Below are positions 14,803-21,819 of a DNA stretch of 64,000 nucleotides, one piece after another. The position numbers were made by a program, and so were the translations under genes. Numbering within the stretch: the stretch's first letter is position 1; every line of letters starts with the position of its first letter. The notes beneath the pieces were generated by a model. That model saw nothing but the letters and a program-made list of their open reading frames with translations, was not told the DNA's origin and searched no databases. Source of the stretch: Candidatus Cloacimonadota bacterium (GTDB lineage Bacteria > Cloacimonadota > Cloacimonadia > Cloacimonadales > JAJBBL01); contig JAHYIR010000001.1 in assembly GCA_019429305.1 (NCBI GenBank), forward strand, positions 248,001 through 312,000, read 5' to 3'.

Positions 14803-17103
14803 CTATTTCAAAAATAACATCTTTCTCGTTCTTTCGTATCCATCAGTTCTTAAGCGGTAGAGATATACCCCGCTTGGTAAATCCTTCCCTTTGGCAGTCA
14901 GAGGATTCCAAACTATAGAATGTTCTCCTTGAGGTAATTTTTCATTAATTAGCTCAGTAATTCTCTGTCCTTTGATATTGTAGATTTCTAATAATACTAC
15001 CCCCTCTCTCTCTAAGATGAATTTTATAGTAGTTTCGGGATTGAAGGGATTGGGATAGTTCTGCAATAATCTTGGACTTTTGGGTACTACGACAAGATCA
15101 TCACCAACACTTAAATCATGACTATATTCGAAAACCCCTATACTTGTTGCGTATGAACATGCGAAAAGATACTTGAGATCATTCGACTCACGGAAAAATA
15201 TCCAGTTACTGCGAACATTATGAAGGAAATAGGTGAATGGTGCGATTATTCCGTTAGGTTCGTTACTCAGATCGAACACAAAAATTGCTGAACCGGGACT
15301 TTGATACAAAAGATCATCTTTAATATAGGGAACACCGGGCATAGGGATTTGAAAGACTAATTCCGGATTTACCGGATCGGATAGGGAATAGAAATCTGTA
15401 TTAGAATATCCACTACTGGAAGGATCATAGATAGTGAGATAATCACCCGTCATCTTAATCAGCGGATCTGGGTGAAACACGAAGTAATCAATCGTATTTT
15501 GCAGCAGAGGGGCATTATCATTCATTCCCGAAAATATACTTAGTCTATGCCAATTCAAGTTACCCCTTCTTGTTAGGCAGTACATATAGTCATTATCAAT
15601 AACATAATATACATCGTTTTCTAAATAAGAGAGATCCATCTCAAAGAGTAACTCGTATTGACCCTCCTCACTGATATCATACTTACGCAGTATATTTTGA
15701 TACCAGGGCTTGATGTATAATGCATCAGGATCTGACTCGTAACGGTTAACTAAAACATTTTGCCCCGACCAAAAACTAATATCTATACTATTTCTCAGAT
15801 GAGGATTGAAAGGGTCCGAGACATCATATACCTCTATATCCCCGAACTCGTAATTGCTGCAATCTCTTAAGATCAAGAGATTATTTACAAGATAGTCCCG
15901 AAGTGAGACTGCTAACTTTGGTACACCCTCGAAAATTCTGGTGATCTCTATTATATTCAAGGGATTTGAGATATCGTGAACTCTGAAACCTGAGGTGACT
16001 TTATCACTTCTTACAAATACATGATTATCATTAAGATAGATGTAAGCATTCATACGGTGGTCGGATGTCGTATCGATATAATGAAATTCACTGTCTTCAT
16101 AGCGAAATCTCTGAATCCCCTCACGCAGAACCGTAAAATATACATTATCTTCCCAATCGGCAGCATCTATCCCTTCACAGAAAAAGAAATCATCTTCAGA
16201 AATTTGCTGAATCGTATAATCGTTCATATCAATTGCTACTAAATTAAAAGGATTTAAATAGAGCAGATAATTGTTCATAATGTAAAAAGTGTCACCGAAG
16301 ATAATCATCTCATTTTCGAGCCAGGGTATGTTATATAATAATTGCCAGTCGTTCAGATCAGTCACATCCCAAAAAGAGATTTCACGTGTATTATTGAAAA
16401 TCAATGTTGAGTCCTCATAAGAACCTTGATGGTAAATACCGTAGTTATGTGCTTCTGATATGTTGCCCGAACCGACTACACTTACATTGTCAATATCGCT
16501 GATATCGTATATCAGATGATCAAAATGATCCACTCTCGATAAGATAAGAGTATCACTGAAAAGAAGGTGCGGGTATGTTGGTATCGGATTAGGATGTATT
16601 ATCTCCAAAGCGGTGTTGATAAGAGGATTAAAGGGAGGCCACGCTACTGTGTTTACGATAAAATGGTCATTTAAAACGTTCAGATAGGGAACCCACGGTA
16701 CATTATCATCAAATTCCAATGATTGGACAACAAAGGGTTCGGAAGGGTTGGTAACGTCGATCTTGTGGATCATAGCGTTGAAGGGATCATACTGTCTCGA
16801 TGATGTTCCAATAAACAAATGGTTCCCTATCTTTTCCATTGTCCAGGGTTCAATGATAAGTTTTCTGGTCAGCAGCGTCAGACTTCCGTCAACTTCCATA
16901 GAATATACCTCCAATCCATATCGAGTCAGAGTGTATAGATAAGGATATTCGATGATAATGTTGTTGACTCGATTGGTTCCTATTCGTCTGTTCGCTATGG
17001 AAAACTCATTTACCTTCTCTATCTGAAAATCTACTGAAATTAGATCAAAGGTTATTAAGTATAACATGACCATTATTATCGGTACATATCTTGATTTATC
17101 CAT
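14803..17103 (-). CDS. Secreted LVIVD-like repeat protein with sorting domain (cassette copy 1)
   Basis: Exported 766-residue protein, last gene of a duplicated cassette. After a signal peptide (about 1-24) it is composed of propeller-type repeats marked by phrases such as DVTNPSEPFVV, DVSDPFNPHL, LSDPVNPEL, resembling the LVIVD/beta-propeller surface repeats. The sorting domain occupies about 680-766 (LLQNYPNPFNPETTIKF, YNIKGQ, RKMLFLK). The part of its DNA coding the sorting domain, 14969-15060, is 90/92 identical to the matching part of the gene at 18067-20373, whereas the rest of the two proteins is much more diverged. GGAGAAGG ribosome site directly after a strong hairpin. Confidence 0.82.
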   Translation of the reverse strand: MDKSRYVPIIMVMLYLITFDLISVDFQIEKVNEFSIANRRIGTNRVNNIIIEYPYLYTLTRYGLEVYSMEVDGSLTLLTRKLIIEPWTMEKIGNHLFIGTSSRQYDPFNAMIHKIDVTNPSEPFVVQSLEFDDNVPWVPYLNVLNDHFIVNTVAWPPFNPLINTALEIIHPNPIPTYPHLLFSDTLILSRVDHFDHLIYDISDIDNVSVVGSGNISEAHNYGIYHQGSYEDSTLIFNNTREISFWDVTDLNDWQLLYNIPWLENEMIIFGDTFYIMNNYLLYLNPFNLVAIDMNDYTIQQISEDDFFFCEGIDAADWEDNVYFTVLREGIQRFRYEDSEFHYIDTTSDHRMNAYIYLNDNHVFVRSDKVTSGFRVHDISNPLNIIEITRIFEGVPKLAVSLRDYLVNNLLILRDCSNYEFGDIEVYDVSDPFNPHLRNSIDISFWSGQNVLVNRYESDPDALYIKPWYQNILRKYDISEEGQYELLFEMDLSYLENDVYYVIDNDYMYCLTRRGNLNWHRLSIFSGMNDNAPLLQNTIDYFVFHPDPLIKMTGDYLTIYDPSSSGYSNTDFYSLSDPVNPELVFQIPMPGVPYIKDDLLYQSPGSAIFVFDLSNEPNGIIAPFTYFLHNVRSNWIFFRESNDLKYLFACSYATSIGVFEYSHDLSVGDDLVVVPKSPRLLQNYPNPFNPETTIKFILEREGVVLLEIYNIKGQRITELINEKLPQGEHSIVWNPLTAKGKDLPSGVYLYRLRTDGYERTRKMLFLK

Positions 17104-17122
17104 AACCTTCTCCTTTTAATGT

Positions 17123-17155
17123 ATCCCCTGAAGAGTAAAAAACTCTTCAGGGGAT
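17123..17155 (-). promoter_or_regulatory. Intra-cassette hairpin before the large secreted gene (copy 1)
   Basis: Perfect 14-bp stem ATCCCCTGAAGAGT / ACTCTTCAGGGGAT with a 5-base loop, between the small secreted gene and the large secreted gene. In the transcribed direction no T run follows; instead the ribosome site comes 10-15 bases later. It is therefore more like an RNA stabiliser, processing site or translational control element than a full terminator. The second cassette has an equivalent palindrome at the same place. Confidence 0.6.
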
Positions 17156-17173
17156 ATTGGTAATCGATTATTA

Positions 17174-17557
17174 TCATTCATCCCCGCCACAGGGAGGGTC
17201 TGAAGTTGGATTAACAGGTGGGCTCAAATCTATGAAGAAATAGTTATTATAACCCAAGTTAGTCCTGATTTCTCTAAATGATGCTCCGTGTGGAAAAGTA
17301 CCGGCAGTCACTCTAACCGCATGTAATTGATTTCCGAAATCTAAAATCATAGAATGATAGCGTGTGTCCGGAAGAACTATGACTGTCCATTCTCTTTCTA
17401 GTTCCCATTGGCTCTGGTATGTTTCTTTAATTTCAAGTTTTAGCCAAGCTACTCCGACTCCAACCATATCAAATTCGAAGTTATACTGGATTTGGGCAAA
17501 GAGTTCAACACTACCTAATAGTATCAACACCACTACTAACATTATTAGACATTTCAT
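17174..17557 (-). CDS. Small secreted protein (cassette copy 1)
   Basis: 127-residue exported protein of unknown function. ATG 17557 is chosen because GGAGGTG lies 5 bases upstream and the signal peptide (hydrophobic LIMLVVVLILLG, ending near LFAQ) then starts at the N-terminus; a longer frame from 17587 would put ten polar residues before it. The mature part is beta-rich and aromatic, ending in PPCGGDE. There is no sorting domain. It is followed by a hairpin and then the large secreted protein, and preceded by an 83-residue ORF and a conserved hairpin. Confidence 0.7.
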   Translation of the reverse strand: MKCLIMLVVVLILLGSVELFAQIQYNFEFDMVGVGVAWLKLEIKETYQSQWELEREWTVIVLPDTRYHSMILDFGNQLHAVRVTAGTFPHGASFREIRTNLGYNNYFFIDLSPPVNPTSDPPCGGDE

Positions 17558-17569
17558 TTCACACCTCCA

Positions 17570-17643
17570 TTTATTTGATTTCCTCAATTGTCAGGTCTTA
17601 CTCTCGAGTTGTAGTAAGACCGGTCTGCCTGATGAATTTGTTT
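17570..17643 (-). promoter_or_regulatory. Conserved 74-nt element with hairpin upstream of small secreted gene (copy 1)
   Basis: Matches 20850-20923 at 70 of 74 positions. It contains a perfect hairpin GGTCTTACT (17594-17602) / AGTAAGACC (17613-17621) with a 10-base loop containing CTCGAG, next to the dyad AGACCGGTCT. It covers the end of the 83-residue ORF and reaches the ribosome site of the small secreted gene, so it could couple or gate translation of the two. Function is inferred from conservation only. Confidence 0.5.
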
Positions 17644-17849
17644 CTCGGATTGGGAAAGAATCTCTGAAGGCAATTATTGTTAGAAATGTGATGTTTAGTG
17701 ATACGATGAACATAGTTGTTAACACTCCTTGTATTTGTTGAGAAAATAACGTTGGCAGCTTTTATCCCGGAAATATAAAAAGAGTATACAGGATTATCTT
17801 TAGGTGTCTTTCTCTTATGTAATAAAGCGGTAAAAGATGTCGATAACAT
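17598..17849 (-). CDS. Small ORF with conserved C-terminus (cassette copy 1)
   Basis: 83 codons from ATG 17849, which has GGAG at 7-base spacing; a longer frame to 17930 lacks a good ribosome site. No signal peptide or membrane segment is evident, and no family is recognised. The last 23 residues (LxRFFPNPxN then KFIRQTGLTTTRE) are almost identical to the end of the 73-residue ORF at 20878-21099. Over these 23 codons, ten differ between copies: eight silently and two conservatively (Q/H, R/K). That is the pattern of protein-level selection. Upstream the two only share scattered positions (KR...KD...Y, YV...H.IS). Confidence 0.5.
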   Translation of the reverse strand: MLSTSFTALLHKRKTPKDNPVYSFYISGIKAANVIFSTNTRSVNNYVHRITKHHISNNNCLQRFFPNPRNKFIRQTGLTTTRE

Positions 17850-17960
17850 TTTTACACTCCAACCATTCATTACTGTCGTAATAAGAGAGATAGGTTTAAA
17901 TTCTCTAAAGCAGGTACATTGTGACGACATGATATATCCCTTTTATCTTCTCGGTGTTGA

Positions 17961-18006
17961 CTTCGTCGAGCTCGGAAGCAGCCACGAAGAAGTGATTTCC
18001 TCGGTT
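17961..18006 (+). repeat. Dispersed 45-bp repeat copy
   Basis: CGTCGAGCTCGGAAGCAGCCACGAAGAAG-type element, followed by TTTCCTCGGTT (described in parts). Related copies lie at 8609-8653 (inverted) and 25833-25876. Located in the gap between the large gene of copy 2 and the small ORF of copy 1. Confidence 0.55.
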
Positions 18007-18066
18007 GGCATTTTTGTTTATCTCAAATCTCCATTAGTTTTATATATAGAATGAATAAGAAAGAAC

Positions 18067-20373
18067 CTATTTTATGAGAGCGATTTTTCTAACTTCCCGA
18101 TAGCCGCAATCTGTAATCATTTGATAGAAATAGATACCTGAAGGCATCTGCCTGTTCCTGTCATCGAGACCATTCCAGATTACTTGATGTTCACCGGCAT
18201 CTCTTTGTTCATCAACAAGTGTTTTAACACGCTGCCCTTTGATATTGTAGATTTCTAATAATACTTCCCCCTCTCTCTCTAAGATGAATTTTATAGTAGT
18301 TTCGGGATTGAACGGATTGGGATAGTTTTGAGCCAGGGAAGTTTTTAATGGGATTTGAATGACATTTTCATCTGTTGATGAAGTAAACTCAAGGTTATAT
18401 CGCCTAATATAGCTACTTGCAGCGTCTGCATCAGAAACATATAGTTTCGATAATTCAGGTATAAAATCGATATAATAGGCATATGTTGTATCAAATTGAT
18501 AACTACCCAGATAGTGCATACCTGAATAATCGAAGGAATAAAAATCCCTCGATGTAAAAAGAAAATTAGCCATATAGAAGATATTCAAGTTGGTAAATTG
18601 ATGGATAAATACCGGAGGAAAACTCAAGAATTCTATTTCCTCTATAAAATCCGGGAAGGAATGATGATACAGACCAACACTAACTGACATATCATGCCCA
18701 GTAGGTTGTTTATAGAGAACCAATAGATCTTCATGAAACATCAAGGAGTTATTATAATTGCCATAAAGGGAGATGTTGAACTCATGTAACAAATGATATG
18801 GAGCTTGATAGTCGAAAATTAGAATTCTGTTAGTAGTGAAACAATAAACATAGAGATAATCAGGAGGACCGACGTCTTTATGATTAAGAATTTTTGAAAT
18901 GCTGCTGTTAGGTATGTATATTGTAGCTTCATCGATAAGTTCATATTCATCATTAATCGAAAGAACCCAGTATGATTCTTCCATATCTTTCCTTACCAAC
19001 AAATAAGGATCTTTCCAATAAATCCATGGTATTGTTGGATGGATGTTTTCCAGAGAGTAATCCGAAATGTATTCTATACTATCATCATCATAACGATAAA
19101 TCCTCAGGTTATAATTCTCCTCTGTTGATTCGATGTTCATTAGAACATTAAAAAACAGAGAATCATTTGCAGCATAGAATCTGTGGTGAAAAAGATCGTC
19201 ACTGAGTTGGATTATTTCTGATTCCTCATTGATATCAAAATAGTACAGATCTCCATTAACGGTGAATAAAAAGTATTTATCCAGAAGAAATCTAGTGCCT
19301 ATATGTTTATTCTTTAAAATGTCGTTTACAGTTATTGTATCGGGAAAATGATTCAAGTCTATTTTAGCTATTCCTTTCTTCTGACGTCCGAAATAGAGGT
19401 AGTTGTTATTTACTATTAGTGGCTTTTTTATACATTGAAGACTATCATCATCTATATATGTATTCAGCAGAACAGGAGAATAAGGGTTGTTGAGATCAAA
19501 TACATAGAGCATGGAACTATCATTCATTATAATCAAATAGTCTTCGTAGATAAGAGCATTGTTAAAAGCATTGTGAGAAGGAAGATGCGGAAAATCTTCT
19601 ATGATCGACAATATTACCGGATTGTCATGATCAGATATATCAACTAAAATAACTCTGGTGTTTTTCAGGATGATCAAGAGATCATCAACAAACTCATATC
19701 TGTTCAATTCGGTATCATTTGAGTATATACGACTCAATTCTACCGGATTGTTAACATCGCTGATATCTTGGATGGATACATAAGTAGAATCCGGATAGTT
19801 TATCATTTGCATAAAAAGCAGATCGTTGTTTACCGCGAAATAACCACCGGTTAGTAGATTATTGGTGATCGGTTCAAAGGTTTCTCGATCAATTACATGT
19901 GTATGAATTGAACCTGTCATATTATAGAAGATGTAATCGTCATTTAACTGTAGATTGAATATACAATGCCACGGATCGATGATTTCAAGAGAATTAGTTT
20001 CTATAATACTGTCGCCGGTTATCTCTAATGCTCTGATTATGCTTTTTAACGTAGAGCTAAGATCTTCAACATTTACCAGCACCTGATATATCGTATTTCC
20101 ATAAGCAACGAGAGGAGTTACGGAGTAATTATAGTTATATATTTCGTAAGAAAGCAATTCCAATTCACCGTTATCATGTATCGAATATTCTTCAAATGCG
20201 TACTTACTGTCGATAAAGAGCCGATCATCTATTATTACGATAGATGATTCGTAATAAGAATTAACTCTGTATATATCACTGTGATACTCGATGGTGCTGA
20301 TATCTGGTATGTCGTAAGTTAGCAAAGTTACCGCCAGATATAGCAGATAGATTACTAATAGTGTTTTTTTCAT
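18067..20373 (-). CDS. Secreted repeat protein with sorting domain (cassette copy 2)
   Basis: Exported 768-residue paralogue of the protein at 14803-17103, almost the same length. Signal peptide about 1-18 (LLVIYLLYLAVTLLT). The body is an Asp/Tyr/Ile-rich propeller-like repeat region, with DISDVNNPVELS and DISDHDNPVILS as recognisable LVIVD-type phrases. The sorting domain is residues about 680-768 (LAQNYPNPFNPETTIKF, YNIKGQRVKTLV, then GYREVRKIALIK, a variant last strand). GGAGGAAG ribosome site immediately after a 34-base perfect palindrome. Likely surface-displayed; ligand unknown. Confidence 0.82.
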   Translation of the reverse strand: MKKTLLVIYLLYLAVTLLTYDIPDISTIEYHSDIYRVNSYYESSIVIIDDRLFIDSKYAFEEYSIHDNGELELLSYEIYNYNYSVTPLVAYGNTIYQVLVNVEDLSSTLKSIIRALEITGDSIIETNSLEIIDPWHCIFNLQLNDDYIFYNMTGSIHTHVIDRETFEPITNNLLTGGYFAVNNDLLFMQMINYPDSTYVSIQDISDVNNPVELSRIYSNDTELNRYEFVDDLLIILKNTRVILVDISDHDNPVILSIIEDFPHLPSHNAFNNALIYEDYLIIMNDSSMLYVFDLNNPYSPVLLNTYIDDDSLQCIKKPLIVNNNYLYFGRQKKGIAKIDLNHFPDTITVNDILKNKHIGTRFLLDKYFLFTVNGDLYYFDINEESEIIQLSDDLFHHRFYAANDSLFFNVLMNIESTEENYNLRIYRYDDDSIEYISDYSLENIHPTIPWIYWKDPYLLVRKDMEESYWVLSINDEYELIDEATIYIPNSSISKILNHKDVGPPDYLYVYCFTTNRILIFDYQAPYHLLHEFNISLYGNYNNSLMFHEDLLVLYKQPTGHDMSVSVGLYHHSFPDFIEEIEFLSFPPVFIHQFTNLNIFYMANFLFTSRDFYSFDYSGMHYLGSYQFDTTYAYYIDFIPELSKLYVSDADAASSYIRRYNLEFTSSTDENVIQIPLKTSLAQNYPNPFNPETTIKFILEREGEVLLEIYNIKGQRVKTLVDEQRDAGEHQVIWNGLDDRNRQMPSGIYFYQMITDCGYREVRKIALIK

Positions 20374-20389
20374 TATCTTCCTCCAATGA

Positions 20390-20423
20390 AATATTGCGGG
20401 TATCTTAAGATACCCGCAATATT
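20390..20423 (-). promoter_or_regulatory. 34-base perfect palindrome before the large secreted gene (copy 2)
   Basis: AATATTGCGGGTATCTT followed directly by its exact reverse complement, between the small and the large secreted gene. On the transcript the ribosome site GGAGGAAG starts about 5 bases after it, with no T run, so it may shield the ribosome site or stabilise the upstream RNA rather than terminate. It matches the position of the hairpin at 17123-17155 but not its sequence. Confidence 0.6.
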
Positions 20424-20434
20424 TAACTATGTAA

Positions 20435-20836
20435 TCAATAAGCTTGAACCCACCAGATGTCTATCCATGCGGCTCCGTCAAAATCAGCATAATAATCAGT
20501 ACCTCTGAATTTTACTATTACCTCGCAATAGTCATCAATAGTGAAAGGATCTGGAATTGTGGTAAAATTATAATAGTATCCTCCAGTATATTGGCTGTAA
20601 ACATTAAACTGATAAATCTGGGGAGCTCCTGATCCTGGAATAGGATTCAAAACAAATCCCAAATTTTGACCGGGAGGGGCAGGCTGCCAAATATTGAGGA
20701 AATGATTATAAAGCCATATTTCTCCTTGTACATGATTTGTTTTGGATCCCTGTTGTTCTTCAAAAGTTATGATGTCCGAGTTTAATAAAACACTAAACAT
20801 GAGTAGTGTTAATGTAAGTAAAAGTACGCGTTTCAT
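20435..20836 (-). CDS. Small secreted protein (cassette copy 2)
   Basis: 133-residue exported protein; signal peptide about 1-20 (RVLLLTLTLLMFSVLLNS). The mature part is rich in Tyr, Trp, Phe and Gly and probably an all-beta domain; it ends WIDIWWVQAY. No family is recognised and there is no sorting domain. Its place in the cassette equals that of the 127-residue protein at 17174-17557, but I cannot see clear sequence similarity between the two, so this slot may hold variable cargo. AGGAGGTC ribosome site. Confidence 0.68.
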   Translation of the reverse strand: MKRVLLLTLTLLMFSVLLNSDIITFEEQQGSKTNHVQGEIWLYNHFLNIWQPAPPGQNLGFVLNPIPGSGAPQIYQFNVYSQYTGGYYYNFTTIPDPFTIDDYCEVIVKFRGTDYYADFDGAAWIDIWWVQAY

Positions 20837-20849
20837 AACAGACCTCCTA

Positions 20850-20923
20850 TTTATTTGATTTCCTCGATTGTTAGGTCTTACTCTCGAGTTGTAGTAAGAC
20901 CGGTCTGCCGAATGAATTTGTTT
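20850..20923 (-). promoter_or_regulatory. Conserved 74-nt element with hairpin upstream of small secreted gene (copy 2)
   Basis: Second copy of the element at 17570-17643, with the identical hairpin GGTCTTACT / AGTAAGACC (20874-20901). The 37-base core from 20873 is unchanged between copies. It overlaps the end of the 73-residue ORF and runs to the ribosome site of the downstream gene. Confidence 0.5.
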
Positions 20924-21099
20924 TTGGGGTTTGGAAAAAACCTGTGCAATAGCAGTGGGAGAGTATCGGACTCAGAAGAGATGATATGATCATTTGAAAC
21001 CAATACATATCTATAGGAGTGCAGACATCTTCTGACTATATCTATCAACAATAGTATAGATAGATAGATATCTTTCTTATTGGTTCTTTTGACTTCCAT
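20878..21099 (-). CDS. Small ORF with conserved C-terminus (cassette copy 2)
   Basis: 73 codons from ATG 21099 (GGGGA about 6 bases upstream), the first gene after the promoter at 21154-21182, with a predicted 45-base leader. It begins MEVKRTNKKD and has an Ile/Leu-rich stretch, then the conserved ending NKFIRQTGLTTTRE shared with the ORF at 17598-17849. Position first in the operon and silent-change bias support a real gene, perhaps a regulatory leader protein or a chaperone for the secreted products; no function can be read from sequence. Confidence 0.5.
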   Translation of the reverse strand: MEVKRTNKKDIYLSILLLIDIVRRCLHSYRYVLVSNDHIISSESDTLPLLLHRFFPNPKNKFIRQTGLTTTRE

Positions 21100-21153
21100 A
21101 CGATATCCCCACACTGCAGTTCTTTGATATTACTTTCACATCCAACTAACCTT

Positions 21154-21182
21154 TATATAAAGTAGAGAGGTCTATTTGTCAA
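21154..21182 (-). promoter_or_regulatory. Strong sigma70-like promoter of the duplicated cassette
   Basis: Minus-strand TTGACA (21177-21182), 17-base spacer, TATATA (21154-21159). It points at the 73-residue ORF and could drive all six genes down to 14803, as no strong terminator lies between. Confidence 0.7.
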
Positions 21183-21549
21183 TAAAAAATTATAGCGGAT
21201 AAATATCTTTTCAATAATAGCATTGAAGCGGTATTTTTTTATAATGTAAAACTACGATGAGTTTCTTATAATCATTATTTATTGATTTTGCTCGATGTTA
21301 TTCCAAGATAAATTTATTGCCAACCTATTGTGAGCACACGAGTCGGCTAAGGCCGACTCGTAGGGTCCCTAATGGAAAGATTAAGGAAATCCTAATCCCA
21401 ATCCAATCATTTAATATGGTATTTAGTTAGTTTTATTGATTCTATAAGAATCTGAGTTATTTTCAAATTGAGAGAAGATACTGAAAAAAACACTTTACAA
21501 AATACTGGTAGTAAAAAAGATAAGCCGATATAGAAAAGAAGGAGGAAAA
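21183..21549. other. Gap between divergent cassette and rpsO
   Basis: No gene seen. A stable hairpin CGAGTCGGC / GCCGACTCG with a 4-base loop lies at 21339-21360, followed by TAGGGTCCCTAAT; it resembles small mobile palindromes common between genes. The rpsO leader (about 21420-21549) contains TTTACA at 21492 with a poor -10 match, so its promoter is uncertain. Confidence 0.45.
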
Positions 21550-21819
21550 ATGTCTTTAACTAGCGAAGCCAAAGAGGCTATCATGGCAGAGTTTAAACTC
21601 CATGATTCAGATACCGGATCACCGGAAGTACAGGTTGCTCTATTAACCCAACGGATAAAGCAGATAACCGAGCACCTGAAAATATATAAAAAAGATTTTC
21701 ATACGCGCAGGAGTCTGTTGATTTTAATCGGACAGCGTAAGAGACTTTTAAATTATTTAGCCAAGAAAGATATCGAAAGGTATCGAACCCTGATAAAGAG
21801 ATTGGGCTTAAGAAGATAA
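21550..21819 (+). CDS. rpsO: 30S ribosomal protein S15
   Basis: 89 residues, the standard S15 length, starting [10 protein letters not shown] and carrying the conserved [20 protein letters not shown] and RRLLNYL-like ([11 protein letters not shown]) motifs. It binds 16S rRNA in the platform of the small subunit and bridges to 23S rRNA. AGGAGG ribosome site. Followed by a terminator and then pnp, the same gene order as in many bacteria. Confidence 0.98.

What the first reader, a model, noticed from the sequence alone, without database searches (positions are those of the whole stretch)
14803..21182. Tandemly duplicated three-gene secretion cassette
Two adjacent, same-strand copies have the same plan: small ORF (73 or 83 codons) ending in an almost invariant peptide; a 74-nt element with hairpin; a 127-133 residue signal-peptide protein; a strong hairpin or palindrome; and a 766-768 residue LVIVD-like protein with sorting domain. 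A single good promoter stands before copy 2 and no clear terminator separates the copies. The small secreted proteins look unrelated, as if that slot holds variable cargo, while the frame is kept. I know of no named system with this plan; candidate roles are a surface adhesin with a secreted partner, or a contact or toxin-like system.
Basis: partly seen in the sequence, partly recalled or inferred. Interest (0 to 1): 0.72.

Follow-up and report, generated by a model that had tools for sequence, protein, structure and literature searches.

The report
Tandem surface-protein operons with hairpin leaders
Two side-by-side copies of a gene pair, a small secreted protein followed by a large cell-surface protein, sit behind a shared hairpin-bearing leader; the pair recurs across the little-known bacterial phylum Cloacimonadota, so it is a real and apparently undescribed kind of surface-protein operon, although what it binds or does is unknown.

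Summary
Both modules (minus strand, Candidatus Cloacimonadota) read: leader element, small signal-peptide protein, strong hairpin, about 767-residue protein with a type A T9SS sorting tail. The "three-gene cassette" is better described as a two-gene operon behind a cis-regulatory leader. The pair recurs: 24 of 40 distinct homologues of the large protein have a small secreted gene directly upstream, against 0 of 26 other T9SS-tailed genes (P about 1e-7). Tandem pairs occur in at least two other genomes. The inter-gene hairpin is present in 19 of 22 pairs, usually with a different stem sequence. The two large proteins are distant full-length homologues, probably beta-propellers. Small and large proteins co-diverge (Mantel r 0.74), which favours cognate partners over freely swapped cargo. 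The small ORF is not a conserved gene; its invariant end belongs to a leader element (KNKF[IV]-coding motif plus hairpin) seen upstream of secreted-protein genes in 12 genomes, though the peptide shows coding-like substitutions. Most likely: a surface receptor or adhesin with a small beta-sandwich partner, its stoichiometry set by the hairpin. Partnership, regulation and function are inferred, not shown.

The parts
21154..21182 (-). promoter-like site TTGACA-N17-TATATA before copy 2
   Evidence: read directly from the sequence; promoter-like matches in the region are no more frequent than in shuffles, so weak
20878..21099 (-). small ORF of copy 2 (73 codons), ends RFFPNPKNKFIRQTGLTTTRE*; probably leader sequence, translation uncertain
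   Evidence: 9 of 10 differences from copy 1 synonymous; peptide-coding pattern absent from 117 relatives
20831..20946 (-). leader element of copy 2: motif AACAAATTCATTCGGCA (20906-20922), hairpin (20874-20901), CTAACAATCG, RBS
   Evidence: 87% identical to copy 1 over 116 nt; motif plus hairpin recurs upstream of secreted-protein genes in other genomes
20435..20836 (-). small secreted protein of copy 2 (133 aa), predicted all-beta, homologous to partners of type-2 large proteins
   Evidence: no Pfam or NCBIfam hit
20389..20424 (-). inter-gene hairpin of copy 2, 16-bp stem, no U-run
   Evidence: z -6.9; rank 1 of 73 co-directional gaps in the contig
18067..20373 (-). large protein of copy 2 (768 aa): signal peptide, beta-propeller region, T9SS type A sorting tail (18067-18324)
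   Evidence: TIGR04183 34.6 bits against cut-off 23; fold; full-length homologues
17598..17849 (-). small ORF of copy 1 (83 codons), ends RFFPNPRNKFIRQTGLTTTRE*; translation uncertain
17552..17666 (-). leader element of copy 1: motif AACAAATTCATCAGGCA (17626-17642), hairpin (17594-17621), CTGACAATTG, RBS
17174..17557 (-). small secreted protein of copy 1 (127 aa), ends SDPPCGGDE
   Evidence: loose similarity to other type-1 small proteins in alignment A4; no homologue by single-sequence search
17122..17156 (-). inter-gene hairpin of copy 1, 15-bp stem, no U-run
   Evidence: z -6.1; rank 4 of 73
14803..17103 (-). large protein of copy 1 (766 aa): beta-propeller type, T9SS type A sorting tail (14803-15057)
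   Evidence: TIGR04183 36.6 bits; full-length homologues in other families of the order; homologous to copy 2's protein by profile comparison, 99.7%
14965..15063 (-). sorting-tail DNA patch 96% identical to 18232-18330

Best explanation
Each copy is an operon for a two-part cell-surface assembly. The large protein is exported by Sec, carried across the outer membrane by the type IX secretion system through its C-terminal sorting tail, and displayed as a beta-propeller receptor or adhesin. The small signal-peptide protein, probably a compact beta-sandwich, is its cognate partner; each large lineage keeps its own small partner and the two diverge together. The strong hairpin about 10 nt after the small gene's stop codon acts as an mRNA stabiliser or processing element, so that more small protein is made than large protein. 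The leader element (KNKF[IV]-coding motif, hairpin, AATTG box) is a shared cis-regulatory switch for surface-protein genes. Shown here: gene order and its recurrence, T9SS tail, SprA, hairpins, leader recurrence, co-divergence. Inferred: physical partnership, stoichiometry control, regulation, and the binding role.
For: Small signal-peptide gene directly upstream in 24 of 40 large homologues (one spurious automatic hit, L071, discounted) against 0 of 26 other T9SS-tailed genes; Fisher P 1.4e-7. Inter-gene hairpin z < -2 in 19 of 22 pairs, median z -4.5; stems start a median 10 nt after the stop and 14 of 22 lack a terminator-like T-rich tail, including both in the window. The window's two gaps rank 1st and 4th of 73 in the contig. 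Small/large co-divergence over 22 pairs: Mantel r 0.74, p 0.0005. T9SS type A tail above cut-off and SprA_N at 98.8 bits in the genome. Propeller matches, PorZ and the BT4673 sensor among them; LVIVD above cut-off in a homologue. All-beta small protein. Precedent: stem-loops in the 3'-UTR of selected genes set stoichiometry in SRPS operons (PMC8219983, PMC4423207).
Against: 16 of 40 large homologues lack the small gene, and one small gene with its leader (L235) stands without a large gene, so the pairing is not obligatory. The small proteins carry no T9SS tail, so how they would reach the surface is unclear. Both structure models are of moderate or low confidence (pLDDT 76 and 63), and the small protein's fold matches are weak (best E 4.9e-3). 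No expression or interaction data exist; co-divergence would also follow from vertical inheritance as a linked pair. Hairpins also occur elsewhere in the contig (18 of 73 gaps z < -2), and 8 of 22 cassette hairpins are followed by at least 5 T in 8 nt, so partial termination is possible.
Confidence: 0.5

Rival explanations
1. The small protein is not a binding partner but an independent secreted product (signal, coat or fimbrial subunit) that merely shares the leader and promoter with the large surface protein.
For: Large genes often lack the small gene; one orphan small gene with its leader exists (L235); the leaders also precede unrelated secreted proteins; the mature small protein diverges faster than its signal peptide.
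Against: Small genes stand upstream of this large family and not of other T9SS-tailed genes; small and large proteins co-diverge.
Confidence: 0.25
2. A contact-dependent or toxin-like system: the small protein is a toxin-like or recognition cargo delivered by the large protein.
For: Same leader with diverging mature small proteins; tandem arrays.
Against: No toxin, nuclease or immunity family at any useful score; no small immunity-like gene was seen to recur beside the pair in the loci read; co-divergence rather than shuffling.
Confidence: 0.05
3. The inter-gene hairpins are weak transcription terminators, so each copy is a small-gene transcript with some read-through into the large gene. (This concerns only how the hairpin acts and can hold together with the main explanation.)
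For: 8 of 22 hairpins are followed by at least 5 T in 8 nt; internal terminators are known to set ABC-importer stoichiometry in Clostridia (PMC9045158).
Against: Neither hairpin in the window has a T-run, and the terminator scan does not report them.
Confidence: 0.3
4. The near-identical leader and tail patches are only the outcome of gene conversion between neighbouring copies, and the leader has no function.
For: Only the 116-nt leader patch and the 99-nt tail patch are near identical between the copies.
Against: The same motif plus hairpin stands upstream of pairs in other families of the order, with different stems and compensatory changes within genomes.
Confidence: 0.1

Closest known systems
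LVIVD-repeat beta-propeller surface proteins (PF08309)
   Same: Repeated blade-like segments; one homologue passes the Pfam cut-off; signal peptide and surface-type sorting tail.
   Different: The window proteins themselves do not reach the LVIVD model; here the protein comes with a small secreted partner gene and a hairpin.
T9SS substrates with type A CTD, including propeller proteins such as PorZ
   Same: TIGR04183 tail above cut-off; fold search lists PorZ (5m11) among many propellers.
   Different: No sequence relation to PorZ was found or tested; no PorZ role is implied. PorZ is not known (own knowledge) to come with a small partner gene and hairpin of this kind.
T9SS type B CTD protein paired with a PorP/SprF-like protein (PMC9143113, PMC12618676)
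   Same: Secreted T9SS substrate with a dedicated partner protein.
   Different: Here the tail is type A, and the partner is a 110-150 aa soluble-looking all-beta protein, not an outer-membrane PorP-like protein.
SRPS operons such as the cellulosomal cip-cel operon (PMC4423207, PMC10311766)
   Same: Strong stem-loop just after selected genes of an operon.
   Different: Processing and stabilisation have not been shown here; a different phylum and different genes.

Membership tests
T9SS type A substrate | C-terminal type A sorting domain (TIGR04183) above cut-off | tested here: met
   36.6 and 34.6 bits against cut-off 23
T9SS type A substrate | N-terminal Sec signal peptide | tested here: met
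   hydrophobic N-termini in both; judged by a simple rule, not by SignalP
T9SS type A substrate | T9SS machinery in the same genome | tested here: met
   SprA_N PF14349 98.8 bits, 0 of 14 control genomes; other components not searched
LVIVD-repeat protein (PF08309) | match above the Pfam gathering score | tested here: not met
   no LVIVD match in either window protein at E up to 1; homologue in L097 passes, 21.6 against 20.2. Resembles it, not filed as a member
SRPS operon | strong stem-loop in the 3'-UTR of a selected gene of an operon | tested here: met
   19 of 22 gaps z < -2; 12-bp median stem
SRPS operon | endonucleolytic processing and differential transcript stability | not testable with these tools
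   needs RNA-seq
T9SS type B + PorP/SprF-like pair | partner is a PorP/SprF-like outer-membrane protein | tested here: not met
   no Pfam or NCBIfam hit in the window's small proteins; 127-133 aa, copy 2's predicted as a beta-sandwich
Known Rfam cis-regulatory RNA | match of the leader to an Rfam family | tested here: not met
   no match on the window leaders at E up to 1; none in 12 relatives' loci at gathering except a tRNA

The most novel reading that the evidence does not exclude
The leader is an undescribed cis-regulatory element of Cloacimonadota: a short leader peptide ending in KNKF[IV] together with a hairpin couples translation of the leader to expression of T9SS surface-protein operons, and the small+large pairs behind it are a diversifying family of two-part surface receptors.
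Probability: 0.4. Interest if true: 0.65.

Novelty: new variant of a known kind. Interest (0 to 1): 0.5.

Why it matters
Cloacimonadota are almost all uncultured, and their surface biology is nearly unknown. A recurring small-partner/large-propeller operon gives a concrete handle on how they attach to substrates or partners. The leader, with a peptide motif and hairpin shared across families, would be a phylum-specific control element for surface proteins, and its variant in one clade (11-codon MLFIICKNKF[VE]* with a strong Shine-Dalgarno site) makes that directly testable by reporter assay.

Tried and rejected
Rfam search of the window leaders and of relatives' loci: nothing beyond a tRNA and sub-threshold hits. 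Pfam and NCBIfam on the window's small proteins: no family. Single-sequence search with copy 1's small protein: no homologue beyond chance. A profile search found 12 strong small-protein places, but 10 of them are the rows the profile was built from, so it adds only two: one in a pair (G034:C134) and one orphan (G038:C101). A genome-contig scan with the type-1 large alignment failed for lack of conserved stretches; the type-2 alignment found 6 loci and supplied organism names. Considered the leader motif as a promoter (TTGACA-like in one clade): rejected because the distance to any -10-like hexamer varies between genomes (by eye). Considered the small ORF as a true third gene: its peptide-coding pattern is absent from 117 relatives. 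Considered a toxin/immunity pair: no family support.
Full report
What is there. The window is part of a 2.39-Mb genome. Relatives carrying the same genes are labelled Candidatus Cloacimonadota in 4 of 6 named records; the other two, from one bin, are labelled Armatimonadetes although their genome falls in the same order here. On the minus strand, two modules lie head to tail between 14803 and about 21182. Each has a leader with a hairpin, a small signal-peptide ORF (127 or 133 aa), an inter-gene hairpin, and a 766- or 768-aa ORF. The large proteins have a T9SS type A sorting domain above the curated cut-off, and the genome encodes SprA.

The copies are old, not recent. By BLASTP the large proteins match only in the last 100 residues. 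Profile comparison of 19 and 6 homologues shows they are distant full-length relatives (99.7% probability, 16% identity). At the DNA level only two patches are near identical: 116 nt in the leader and 99 nt in the sorting tail.

The pair recurs. Full-length homologues of both large proteins occur in other families of the order. Forty distinct large genes have at least 500 nt of upstream sequence in hand; 24 of them have a small signal-peptide gene just upstream (one automatic hit, L071, is a piece of another gene and was discounted). Seven of the 16 without one directly follow another large gene. The control, 26 other T9SS-tailed genes of similar size with at least 500 nt upstream, gives none; Fisher P 1.4e-7. 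Genes are not independent samples, since some come from one genome or genus, so the P value is a guide. Tandem pairs were also found in L092 and L097. One small gene with a leader stands alone (L235). The pairing is therefore common but not obligatory.

Small proteins. Copy 2's small protein has homologues at 22-33% identity next to homologues of its large protein. Copy 1's aligns loosely with a group that shares a signal peptide and a Pro/Asp-rich end but finds no homologue on its own. Across 22 pairs, identity of mature small proteins follows identity of the large proteins (Mantel r 0.74, p 0.0005, which repeats without the spurious pair). Between sister pairs the leader and signal peptide are better conserved than the mature small protein. 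This favours a co-diverging partner over freely exchanged cargo, though linked inheritance alone would also give a correlation.

Folds. AlphaFold models from shallow alignments: copy 2's small protein is all-beta with pLDDT 76, with only weak PDB matches. The large protein is beta-rich with pLDDT 63, and its matches are dominated by multi-propeller proteins, with PorZ and the BT4673 sensor domain among them. A homologue passes the LVIVD cut-off. These support a propeller reading but not a detailed one.

Inter-gene hairpin. In 19 of 22 pairs the gap folds better than dinucleotide shuffles at z < -2, median -4.5. The stem starts a median 10 nt after the stop codon of the small gene, median 12 bp, usually with a different sequence. 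In the 353-kb contig the window's gaps rank 1st and 4th of 73 co-directional gaps. Neither has a T-run. Stem-loops in this position set stoichiometry in SRPS operons (PMC8219983, PMC4423207), which is the role proposed here. Weak termination remains possible, above all for the 8 of 22 with a T-rich tail.

Leader. The window element is AACAAATTYATTYGRCA, then a hairpin, then a CTGACAATTG-like box. In 118 genomes the exact pattern AANAAATTYATTYGRCA has 29 listed hits, against 3 for the reversed control. Those with a strong hairpin next to them and enough sequence to read on are upstream of secreted-protein genes: eight of these pairs and three other secreted genes; the remaining hits lack the hairpin and look like chance. 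Twenty instances in 12 genomes, some found by allowing mismatches upstream of family genes and therefore not independent of that choice, give a median hairpin z of -4.0, with compensatory stem changes within genomes (for example L231 against L207, L229 against L219). In the window's contig only the two copies occur.

Is the small ORF translated? Of 10 differences between the copies across RFFPNP[RK]NKFIRQTGLTTTRE*DLTIEEIK*, 9 are synonymous (P about 1e-4 by random placement, uncorrected for choice of frame), including both differences after the stop codon. In one family of genomes a ~185-nt leader encodes MLFIICKNKF[VE]* behind a strong Shine-Dalgarno site, with synonymous changes and all three stop codons; that this leader is related to the window's rests only on the KNKF likeness and on L073, which has MLILIGKNKFI* with a Shine-Dalgarno site. 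Elsewhere the same motif lacks a start codon. I read this as a leader-peptide motif whose translation is suggested only by substitution pattern, and only in some clades.

Verdict. The finding is real and, as far as these tools and the papers searched show, undescribed. The best account is a T9SS surface-protein operon with a small cognate partner, hairpin-set stoichiometry and a shared leader. Function at the surface (adhesion, polymer or cell binding) is inference.

Noticed in passing
L175-L204 (e.g. L196:1499-1690, minus): A ~185-nt leader in family f8, 67-99% identical to the query, with near-invariant GGAAGAGAG...CACTCTTCCC and a hairpin overlapping the Shine-Dalgarno site, encodes MLFIICKNKF[VE]*; it precedes the pairs and also beta-helix-type secreted proteins and other genes. 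Its main stem hardly varies, so covariation cannot support it. No Rfam hit at gathering in the loci searched.
   Followed up: partly
21489-21606, plus strand: Sub-threshold match to the ribosomal S15 leader (RF00114, 30.5 against 39.5 bits) directly over the start of a gene that reads as rpsO (21550-21819).
   Followed up: no
L235:1939-2301: A small secreted gene of the same family with its leader but no large gene; the neighbour downstream is on the opposite strand.
   Followed up: partly
20854-20880 / 17573-17600: Both differences between the two leader copies after the in-frame TAA (DLTIEEIK*) are synonymous, as if the frame had once been read through.
   Followed up: partly
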